Origin: Saturnia japonica
Taxonomy: Eukaryota > Arthropoda > Insecta > Lepidoptera > Saturniidae
DNA length: 64,000 bases
Direction: 5' to 3'
NCBI GenBank assembly: GCA_033032175.1
Contig: CM065320.1
Coordinates: forward strand, 7,440,001 to 7,504,000
The translations under genes were made by a program, and so were the position numbers. Shown here piece after piece: positions 34,983 through 36,795 of the stretch. Numbering within the stretch: position 1 is the first letter of the stretch; each line of letters begins with the position of its first letter. The notes beneath the pieces are model-generated. The model was given only the letters and a program-made list of their open reading frames with translations, made no database searches and was not told the DNA's origin.

Positions 34983-35011
34983 ATGAAACATAAGCACGTT
35001 TACAAATATTC

Positions 35012-35023
35012 ATGGTATTATAA
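35012..35023 (+). promoter_or_regulatory. Minimal upstream ORF before uENF1
   Basis: ATG GTA TTA TAA, three codons, out of frame with uENF1 and ending one base before the likely uENF1 start at 35025. It could tune initiation if it lies on the mRNA (inference). Confidence 0.4.
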
Positions 35024-35024
35024 A

Positions 35025-35327
35025 ATGTCATCAGTGTTCGATCGTTTACTCGTGTACAGTATTGTATTAAATTTGTTTCTTTGCGCCTACACCGCGCCTT
35101 TCTCAGTACAAGATATTTTAGATGTGTTCGGTAGCCCTATAAAAGATTTCAAAGAATCATTTTCATCAGAGAGTGCGTTAAATAAAACTAATACCGCCTT
35201 TGCGCTTAATTCTACGAATACGATTAAACCAAAAAAAGTTACTATGATTGAAGTGCCACCGAATGCAGAGAGTTGCAAACAAGGTACACATTTGGACAGT
35301 ACAGGAGTGTGCAGGATACCATGGTGA
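35025..35327 (+). CDS. uENF1: uENF1: secreted ENF-cluster protein
   Basis: A 100-residue protein. I chose ATG 35025 because it has A at -3 and is followed by a clean signal peptide (MSSVFDRLLVYSIVLNLFLC, cleavage likely after AYTA). An in-frame ATG at 34983 would add 14 polar residues and sits in a poor context. The mature part has a short helical-looking N terminus (FSVQDILDVFGSPIKDF), Asn-Thr/Ser glycosylation sites, and ends SCKQGTHLDSTGVCRIPW. That end has the pattern C-x2-G-x6-G-x-C-R, the signature of the ENF / growth-blocking peptide superfamily. It is the first of three proteins on one strand, 55 bases before uENF2. In studied moths the equivalent frame is, as I recall, the first cistron of a tricistronic mRNA. 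A cytokine-like role is inferred from the motif only. Confidence 0.85.
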   Translation: MSSVFDRLLVYSIVLNLFLCAYTAPFSVQDILDVFGSPIKDFKESFSSESALNKTNTAFALNSTNTIKPKKVTMIEVPPNAESCKQGTHLDSTGVCRIPW

Positions 35328-35382
35328 TTTAATATCTAATGAAATTAATCGTGGCGTAGTATATTCAGAATATTCATCGAAA

Positions 35383-35607
35383 ATGGACGCGAAATTTGTG
35401 TTATTTGTAATAGTGAGTATACTTTGGTGTCTGTGGGTCCAAACAGAAGCAGGATTGGCATTTAATTTTCATGACAAGCTTCAGATGGCAATTACTACCA
35501 CAACTGAAACCAACCTGCTAACTGGACAAGTAATAAGAGTACCAGAACTTGAATGTCCTCTTGGACAGAGACGAGACTCTTTAGGGAATTGTCGGAATAG
35601 ACTTTAA
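35383..35607 (+). CDS. uENF2: uENF2: secreted ENF-cluster protein
   Basis: A 74-residue protein. The start at 35383 has the best context of the cluster (A at -3, G at +4). A longer in-frame read-back to 35248 would overlap uENF1 and bury the signal peptide, so I reject it. Residues 1-23 are a signal peptide (MDAKFVLFVIVSILWCLWVQ, then TEA). The mature part is only ~51 residues, with a Thr run (AITTTTETN) and a possible cleavage after VIR, ending ECPLGQRRDSLGNCRNRL: again C-x2-G-x6-G-x-C-R, with the same spacing as uENF1 and the paralytic peptide. The stop is followed at once by a good splice donor (AAAG|GTAAAG at 35610), which suggests that the transcript can be spliced between this cistron and the next. 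Confidence 0.88.
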   Translation: MDAKFVLFVIVSILWCLWVQTEAGLAFNFHDKLQMAITTTTETNLLTGQVIRVPELECPLGQRRDSLGNCRNRL

Positions 35608-36289
35608 AGGTAAAGTGTTTTATATGACACAATGAACTGCTATGTTATATCTATATTGTGCAAGTATAATTTAGCTTACAATAATTACTCTACAGTGGTG
35701 TAGTTGAAGACAAAGAAAAAAATTACATGTTATACACATTACGATTCATTTGCCTTTTGTTTATAAAATGACAATTCAAAGATTTGACGCATTATAATTC
35801 TTTTTTCCACTACATTTTTATCAGAAATATTATTTATGGGTATATAAGTCATAATATAATATAATTTCGACTAGATTCTTATTGCTTATAATATTAGGAA
35901 ACACGGTATTTTGCGAAGGACTTTTACTATAAGTAAATATTTATTTTTCGTAGCCATGATGGAGATTATGTAACAATTAGTCATTTTACGCAATGCGATA
36001 TTTAGCAATTTAATTACATTAATATAAAATAAGCCTATTATTTTATTGCAGGATACGAAAACAACAGGAAAATAAATGTAAGAAATTAAAAAAAATATCA
36101 AGTTAAAATAGGTCATTTAAAACAGATGTATGACAAAATAAAATATTATCAGTTCTCAGAATTGTTCATTTTTGCTTTTCGCTGATAAACTTTCAAAGGT
36201 CATAAGTTATCTGTTAGCTGAGACACTACGGGAGAATCAGTGTACAGAGCATTATCTCAGAAGTCAACCGAGCAAGTCAATCTATAAAA
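35608..36289 (+). other. Inter-cistron region, candidate intron
   Basis: A donor-like AG|GTAAAGT lies at 35608-35615, three bases past the uENF2 stop, and an acceptor-like 'cattatctcag' ends at 36260, thirty bases before the paralytic peptide start. Removal would bring the two frames within ~35 bases on one mRNA. Alternatively, an initiator-like 'atcagtgt' near 36236 could start a separate short transcript. The interior is AT-rich and non-coding. Confidence 0.45.
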
Positions 36290-36673
36290 ATGAAATTATT
36301 TTTTATTTTGTGTTGTTCAATATTAACCATACATTTCTGTGATTCCGTTAACGGTAGTGTCAATAGCTTACTAAACAAACTTCGTGATCCCTTGCCTACA
36401 ATTGACCAAAATTTTAGAATTGTCTTCAGGGATAGTTCTGAAGACACATCTAGAAGAGATCAAACTACACGTTTCGTTAAAAATGATTTACCTGCGACCT
36501 CAACATCTCATTCTAAGGCTTTAGAAACAACTACTCAACCTGTAATCACACCTACAACAAGTGCCAATAATGTGACGACAACAGTAAAAGATGGAAGAGA
36601 AAATTTTGCTGGTGGATGTGCTACAGGGTTTATGCGCACTGCAGACGGAAGGTGCAAACCTACCTTTGGATAG
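36290..36673 (+). CDS. PP: Paralytic peptide / growth-blocking peptide (ENF cytokine) precursor
   Basis: A 127-residue precursor. Signal peptide about 1-22 (MKLFFILCCSILTIHFCDSV, then NG), a propeptide with a Thr/Ser-rich stretch (~60-98), a basic processing site KDGR, then the C-terminal cytokine. The cytokine starts ENFAGGCATGF and continues MRTADGRCKPTF, 23 residues, plus one terminal Gly. The ENF start, the two Cys (one disulfide), GG before the first Cys and RTADGRCKPTF are hallmarks of the lepidopteran ENF family. These insect cytokines act on haemocytes and muscle and control plasmatocyte spreading, growth arrest and stress responses. The precursor length fits known ones. Start context has A at -3. 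AATAAA follows 117 bases after the stop. It is the third frame after uENF1 and uENF2. Confidence 0.97.
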   Translation: MKLFFILCCSILTIHFCDSVNGSVNSLLNKLRDPLPTIDQNFRIVFRDSSEDTSRRDQTTRFVKNDLPATSTSHSKALETTTQPVITPTTSANNVTTTVKDGRENFAGGCATGFMRTADGRCKPTFG

Positions 36674-36789
36674 TTGGCTATTTCTATTTGAATAATATGT
36701 GCTTTTATATTAACATATATTTCAGATTTTTGTTAAATACTGTTGTGATTATCGTATCTTGTTATGATTATTCTTTGTATGTCATAAAC

Positions 36790-36795
36790 AATAAA
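36790..36795 (+). terminator. Poly-A signal of the ENF locus
   Basis: AATAAA 117 bases after the paralytic peptide stop; no nearer copy was seen. Confidence 0.65.

What the first reader, a model, noticed from the sequence alone, without database searches (positions are those of the whole stretch)
34983..36795. Three-cistron ENF cytokine locus with an identical C-terminal motif in all three proteins
uENF1 (35025), uENF2 (35383) and paralytic peptide (36290) all end in C-x2-G-x6-G-x-C-[RK] with identical spacing, seen directly. From established knowledge, an insect tricistronic mRNA carrying uENF1, uENF2 and the ENF peptide has been described. The sequence features here fit that: weak AUG at 34983, a three-codon uORF ending one base before the uENF1 AUG, the strongest AUG context on uENF2, and a donor three bases after its stop. 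A cytokine motif in uENF1 and uENF2 suggests that they may also be processed peptides (inference).
Basis: partly seen in the sequence, partly recalled or inferred. Interest (0 to 1): 0.75.

Follow-up and report, generated by a model that had tools for sequence, protein, structure and literature searches.

The report
Moth three-peptide ENF cytokine gene
This stretch of a moth genome holds three small secreted-protein genes in a row, the last being the known insect immune cytokine 'paralytic peptide', and the first two end in the same cytokine signature; the arrangement is already known from silk moths, but whether the first two are also cut into active hormones is open.

Summary
uENF1 (35025-35327), uENF2 (35383-35607) and the ENF precursor (36290-36673) each end 3-4 residues after C-x2-G-x6-G-x-C-[RK]; these are the only hits in six frames of the window (0.01 expected), and about 198 kb of flank has none. 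ENF equals a solved paralytic peptide 23/23. Named uENF1, uENF2 and ENF homologues exist, and a tricistronic insect mRNA is in print: an instance of a known system. Added here: among 16 AUGs of an assumed spliced mRNA only the three cistron starts have AAA at -3 to -1; C-terminal profiles align better than 97.5-99% of column permutations; uENF2 has an invariant Arg (13/13) six residues before its first motif Cys, much like ENF's basic residue (28/28), while uENF1 keeps none in all five sequences within 29. 'Strongest AUG on uENF2' depends on counting +4. Best reading: three paralogous prepro-cytokines, probably on one mRNA, uENF2 a likely second processed peptide. One mRNA was not tested here, and contig data from relatives are mixed.

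The parts
34983..35024 (+). In-frame upstream AUG (weak, T at -3) giving a 14-residue N-terminal extension of uENF1 if used
   Evidence: the four uENF1 relatives found start at the position of AUG 35025
35012..35023 (+). Three-codon uORF (MVL) ending one base before the uENF1 AUG
35025..35327 (+). uENF1 cistron, 100 aa, signal-peptide-like N-terminus, C-terminal GBP-type motif
   Evidence: four relatives, 79-91% identity, one named 'Insect cytokine uENF1' (Samia pryeri); hydrophobic N-terminus; AAA before AUG
35274..35315 (+). uENF1 motif C-x2-G-x6-G-x-C-R
   Evidence: motif positions invariant in 5/5 sequences
35263..35382 (+). Upstream AUG in the uENF2 frame inside uENF1; would extend uENF2 by 40 residues
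   Evidence: P0010, P0011 and Bombyx P0012 carry shorter extensions
35383..35607 (+). uENF2 cistron, 74 aa, signal-peptide-like N-terminus, Thr-rich linker, conserved C-terminus
   Evidence: 12 relatives, 57-84% identity, five named uENF2 by a source; alignment A1; model with C-terminal beta-hairpin
35539..35604 (+). Candidate processed uENF2 peptide (22 aa, after invariant Arg52), with the motif at 35554-35595
   Evidence: Arg52 in 13/13; 17/26 C-terminal columns invariant against 4/25 in the linker; cleavage itself inferred
35610..36051 (+). Inferred intron, donor AAG|GTAAAG, acceptor ATTTTATTGCAG|GAT; holds 10 AUGs
   Evidence: splice not observed; part of intron plus acceptor has a second copy at G000:C13:13535352-13535823
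36290..36673 (+). ENF (paralytic peptide / GBP) precursor cistron, 127 aa
   Evidence: PF02425 E=1.4e-15; 27 homologues
36599..36667 (+). Mature ENF/paralytic peptide, 23 aa, after Arg103, with motif at 36617-36658
   Evidence: identical to PDB 1v28 chain A; position 103 Arg or Lys in 28/28
36790..36795 (+). AATAAA poly(A) signal

Best explanation
This is the ENF cytokine locus of a saturniid-like moth (nearest named relative Samia): three tandem, probably paralogous prepro-cytokine cistrons (signal peptide, pro-segment with Thr/Ser-rich stretch, C-terminal cystine-hairpin peptide), most likely on one two-exon mRNA. Exon 1 holds uENF1 and uENF2, exon 2 the leader and ENF; splicing removes an AUG-dense intron between them. 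Ribosomes choose among the three starts by context-dependent leaky scanning, as published for an insect tricistronic mRNA. ENF is cut after Arg103 to the 23-residue cytokine; uENF2 is probably cut after Arg52 to a similar 22-residue peptide; uENF1 is secreted, with processing uncertain. Shown: frames, motif, homologues, conserved residues, C-terminal profile similarity. Inferred: splice, shared mRNA here, translation mode, cleavage, activity.
For: Motif in all three and nowhere else in the window or about 198 kb of flank. Named uENF1, uENF2 and ENF homologues; the Samia records E1CEG0, E1CEG1, E1CEG2 are consecutive. P0013, P0003 and P0018 (uENF1, uENF2, ENF) are each on one contig of 1367 nt, shorter than the 1649 nt from uENF1 AUG to ENF stop here, as expected of a spliced mRNA if it is one contig; P0015, P0001 and P0017 are each on 6 contigs, longest 4784. 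Motif residues invariant in uENF2 13/13 and uENF1 5/5. C-terminal profile scores reached by 3, 5 and 2 of 200 column permutations for uENF1-uENF2, uENF2-ENF, uENF1-ENF. uENF2 Arg52 13/13; ENF position 103 basic 28/28. AAA only on the three cistron AUGs of 16 (139 of 2138 ATGs on both strands of the window have it). uENF2 model: strands 62-64 and 70-72 inside the motif, block pLDDT 81 and 74. A Bombyx plasma immune complex cuts pro-PSP to the mature peptide (PMC5310873, passages).
Against: No Pfam hit for uENF1 (window sequence), and none of 13 uENF2 sequences matches PF02425; no solved-structure hit for the uENF2 profile; uENF1's only hit is an unrelated enzyme, E 1.4. Single-sequence C-terminal alignment beats shuffles only for uENF1-uENF2 (6 of 2000 reach it; uENF1-ENF 523, uENF2-ENF 225, the last aligned out of register); with C and G held none does (262, 1467, 995 of 2000), so most of the signal is the motif frame. 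Full-length profile comparison gave low probabilities (8.5, 23.5, 1.8%), and uENF2-ENF aligned there in the pro-segment. uENF1: within 29 residues before its first motif Cys no position is basic in all five (position 70 in 4/5, 68 and 71 in 3/5). 15 AUGs precede the ENF start even in the spliced model. Foldseek: 3 matches, best E 6.
Confidence: 0.75

Rival explanations
1. ENF has its own promoter between 36.05 and 36.24 kb and its own mRNA; uENF1 and uENF2 form a separate bicistronic mRNA. (Raised from 0.15 to 0.2 on rechecking the contig lengths; the best explanation lowered from 0.8 to 0.75.)
For: Initiator-like sites at 36113, 36149, 36166 and 36237, the last about 50 bases before the ENF AUG; 15 AUGs precede ENF on the long mRNA. 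Five of seven unnamed uENF2 proteins have no ENF hit of equal longest-contig length.
Against: Eleven initiator-like sites, these four included, fall in the 1.8 kb scanned, and no TATA-like site lies at the usual distance from these four. Good acceptor at 36051. Lengths 1367 and 4784 recur for all three proteins; consecutive Samia accessions; the missing ENF hits may reflect the search, which needs shared exact words. Published tricistronic precedent. The two models can both hold.
Confidence: 0.2
2. uENF1 and uENF2 are regulatory upstream frames whose products do not matter.
For: They lie upstream of the known cytokine and contain or sit beside further short uORFs.
Against: Conserved as proteins about as well as ENF: against the three nearest sets, uENF1 79-91%, uENF2 82-84%, ENF precursor 70-81% (81-82% for ENF by the MAFFT measure); motif invariant; signal-peptide-like starts.
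Confidence: 0.05
3. The C-terminal motif in uENF1 and uENF2 is convergence on a common cystine hairpin, not paralogy with ENF.
For: Beyond C and G positions pairwise similarity is not significant; the top, non-significant structure match to the uENF2 model was an insect metalloproteinase inhibitor fragment, E=6 over 16 columns.
Against: Adjacent, same strand, same precursor layout, same motif spacing without gaps; permutation test 2-5 of 200.
Confidence: 0.2

Closest known systems
Tricistronic insect ENF mRNA (Kanamori et al. 2010, J Biol Chem 285:36933; title seen in reference lists, text not held; that its cistrons are uENF1, uENF2 and ENF is recalled and fits the database names)
   Same: Same three products; named homologues in Samia for all three, in Neogurelca and Theretra for uENF2 and ENF, in Manduca and Bombyx for uENF2 (Manduca's ENF homologue P0020 is listed as uncharacterised with PF02425).
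   Different: Species not identified here; transcript not seen.
GBP/ENF/paralytic peptide family (Pfam PF02425; motif C-x2-G-x4,6-G-x1,2-C-[KR], PMC6439351, first of four parts read)
   Same: ENF is a plain member; uENF1 and uENF2 fit the published motif and uENF2 has a conserved Arg before the peptide.
   Different: uENF1 and uENF2 do not match PF02425 and lack the ENF N-terminus.
Non-lepidopteran GBPs (e.g. Drosophila GBP, receptor Mthl10; PMC6439351)
   Same: Short cystine peptides that meet the loose motif, according to that review.
   Different: No sequence comparison made here.

Membership tests
ENF/GBP peptide family (PF02425) | ENF product matches the curated model | tested here: met
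   E=1.4e-15, 57.1 bits against cut-off 25; 23/23 identical to 1v28
ENF/GBP peptide family (PF02425) | uENF1 and uENF2 match the curated model | tested here: not met
   0 families for both at E<=10; 0 of 13 uENF2 sequences match PF02425; the other four uENF1 sequences were not scanned
GBP motif family, C-x2-G-x4,6-G-x1,2-C-[KR] | C-terminal motif | tested here: met
   all three; invariant in 13/13 uENF2 and 5/5 uENF1
GBP motif family | Conserved basic residue shortly before the peptide | tested here: inconclusive
   ENF position 103 basic 28/28 and uENF2 Arg52 13/13: met; uENF1: none in 5/5 within 29 residues, best 4/5
GBP motif family | Secreted precursor (hydrophobic N-terminus) | tested here: met
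   maximum 11-residue hydropathy 2.3, 3.0 and 2.75 within the first 20 residues; no dedicated signal-peptide program was run
Tricistronic ENF mRNA | Three cistrons in order uENF1, uENF2, ENF on one strand | tested here: met
Tricistronic ENF mRNA | One mRNA carries all three | not testable with these tools
   no transcript data for this species; contig lengths and accessions of relatives are indirect and mixed
Tricistronic ENF mRNA | Start choice by leaky scanning | not testable with these tools
   context counts only

The most novel reading that the evidence does not exclude
One mRNA makes two different processed cytokines in a ratio set by AUG context: ENF, and a 22-residue uENF2 peptide cut after an invariant Arg by the same or a similar immune protease, with its own receptor or as antagonist of ENF; its C-terminus is conserved across the 13 sequences found while its linker drifts.
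Probability: 0.4. Interest if true: 0.6.

Novelty: new member of a known kind. Interest (0 to 1): 0.35.

Why it matters
Natural polycistronic mRNAs are uncommon in animals (established knowledge, recalled), and this one is linked to an immune cytokine. If uENF2 is also processed to a peptide, studies that inject ENF alone see only part of the signal. The invariant Arg and the short predicted peptide make that directly testable.

Tried and rejected
Viral capture: one viral contig matched an ENF pattern (L026), but the match lies in a 61-residue stop-to-stop frame, one of eight listed over that stretch, among them a 246-residue frame that I read by eye as HNH-endonuclease-like (no family scan); rejected as chance. 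The uENF2 profile found no relative there (50 pattern matches, 0 confirmed).

Second ENF locus on C13: about 470 bases match the intron and acceptor at 74-78%, but the 9.5 kb around hold no motif frame and no uENF or ENF similarity above chance; a partial duplication, not a paralogous gene.

uENF2 in ant venom: PMC3909188 (passages) lists 'insect cytokine precursor uENF2' for Tetramorium bicarinatum; not followed and no sequence fetched.

Genome-wide paralogues: not obtained, because the genome search did not complete for these queries. A structure for uENF1 was not obtained.

Literature: uENF1 (20 of 728 listed, none with that word, 4 papers, on Capsicum by the listing, not opened), uENF2 (2 papers, one opened), related terms. 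No functional study of uENF1 or uENF2 appeared in these listings, but the 2010 paper is not in the library, so no claim of absence from print is made.

Full report
What is there. The window is part of a 580 Mb genome (G000:C17:7440001-7504000). Three plus-strand frames follow each other in three different reading frames: uENF1 (35025-35327, 100 aa), uENF2 (35383-35607, 74 aa) and the ENF precursor (36290-36673, 127 aa). Each ends in C-x2-G-x6-G-x-C-[RK], 3-4 residues before the stop. These are the only hits in six frames of 64 kb, strict or loose; 100 Markov sequences gave means of 0.01 strict and 0.09 loose hits, and about 198 kb of flanking genome gave none.

Identity. ENF matches PF02425 (E=1.4e-15) and its residues 104-126 equal PDB 1v28, 'Paralytic Peptide', 23 of 23; the same 23 residues occur in several relatives, so the peptide does not name the species. 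A search of 5.8 billion proteins gave 12 uENF2 relatives (57-84% identity; five named: Samia, Manduca, Neogurelca, Theretra, Bombyx), 4 uENF1 relatives (79-91%; one named, Samia) and 27 ENF relatives. The search finds only relatives sharing exact words, so absence from other moths is not shown.

One mRNA? Not tested directly, and the indirect evidence is mixed. For: P0013 (uENF1), P0003 (uENF2) and P0018 (ENF) are each recorded on one contig of the same length, 1367 nt, while the genome here needs 1649 nt from the uENF1 start to the ENF stop (1207 without 35610-36051); P0015, P0001 and P0017 are each on 6 contigs, longest 4784; the Samia proteins have consecutive accessions (E1CEG0, E1CEG1, E1CEG2). 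That equal lengths mean one contig is inferred. A tricistronic insect mRNA is in print (Kanamori et al. 2010; title in reference lists; PMC4705651 says that translation of one of the polycistronic metazoan mRNAs it cites, this one by its number, clearly occurs via leaky scanning, passages). I could not read the paper itself.

Starts. Taking 34960 as an assumed 5' limit and removing the inferred intron, there are 16 AUGs up to and including that of ENF, and only 35025, 35383 and 36290 are preceded by AAA; 139 of 2138 ATGs in the window (both strands) are, so three named sites would all have it with a chance of about 3e-4. The inferred intron removes 10 AUGs, one of which also has AAA (35768). 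The claim that uENF2 has the strongest context rests on G at +4; PMC4320137 (passages) found no effect of +4 in Bombyx cells but cites a study that did see an effect at +4 to +6. By its consensus the ENF AUG fits best (7 of 9; uENF2 5, uENF1 4), while several other AUGs also reach 5, so that scale separates poorly. The weak AUG 34983 extends uENF1 in frame; AUG 35263 inside uENF1 extends uENF2 in frame.

Are the three related, and are the first two processed? C-terminal profiles (uENF2 45-74, uENF1 70-100, ENF 100-126) align with the motif in register and no gap inside it, with scores met by 3, 5 and 2 of 200 column-permuted controls (uENF1-uENF2, uENF2-ENF, uENF1-ENF). Against: single-sequence alignments beat plain shuffles only for uENF1-uENF2 (6 of 2000; uENF1-ENF 523, uENF2-ENF 225), and none beats shuffles with C and G held; full-length profile comparisons were weak. 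In uENF2 17 of 26 C-terminal columns are invariant in 13 sequences, 4 of 25 in the linker and 3 of 23 in the signal region. Arg52, six residues before the first motif Cys, is Arg in 13 of 13; ENF position 103, seven before, is Arg or Lys in 28 of 28. uENF1 has Lys kept in 5 of 5 at 40, 43 and 54 only, 30 or more residues before Cys84; positions 70, 68 and 71 are basic in 4, 3 and 3 of 5. So processing to a short peptide is plausible for uENF2 and weakly supported at best for uENF1. The AlphaFold2 model of uENF2 (13 sequences, mean pLDDT 67, pTM 0.30) has strands at 62-64 and 70-72, inside the motif, in keeping with the short beta-hairpin described for GBP (PMC6439351, part 1 of 4 read); no library structure matched significantly. 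PMC5310873 (passages) shows that a Bombyx immune complex cuts pro-PSP to the mature peptide; a protease in it is thus a candidate for uENF2 (inference).

Verdict. A confirmed instance of a published locus type. Whether the 2010 paper already reports some of these I cannot tell.

Noticed in passing
window 35682-36085; G000:C13:13535352-13535823 (L004): The intron and acceptor region has one other partly matching copy (74-78%) on another contig, with no ENF-like gene found in the 9.5 kb around it: a partial duplication or a rare mobile fragment.
   Followed up: partly
window 24467-29827, minus: A 1786-residue open frame that reads like a BEL/Pao-type retrotransposon polyprotein (recognised by eye, no family scan of it).
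   Followed up: no
window 5332-5754, minus: A 140-residue frame matching PF18701 (DUF5641), similar by eye to the end of the 24467-29827 frame: perhaps a second retroelement remnant.
   Followed up: partly
window 37302-40288, minus: Two long low-complexity frames (423 and 474 residues, repeats rich in Pro, Arg and Asp), no Pfam match; possibly exons of one repetitive-protein gene convergent with the ENF locus.
   Followed up: partly
window 35012-35023 and 35321-35332: Two near-identical three-codon uORFs (MVL and MVI), the first one base before uENF1, the second overlapping the end of uENF1 in an ACCATGG context.
   Followed up: no
window 35350-35382 against Bombyx P0012: Residues just before the uENF2 start look alike in Bombyx and here (RGVV, a Ser, then KM), hinting that the leader before uENF2 is conserved or sometimes translated.
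   Followed up: no
literature, PMC3909188: An ant venom-gland transcript (Tetramorium bicarinatum) was listed as 'insect cytokine precursor uENF2', suggesting relatives of uENF2 outside moths.
   Followed up: no
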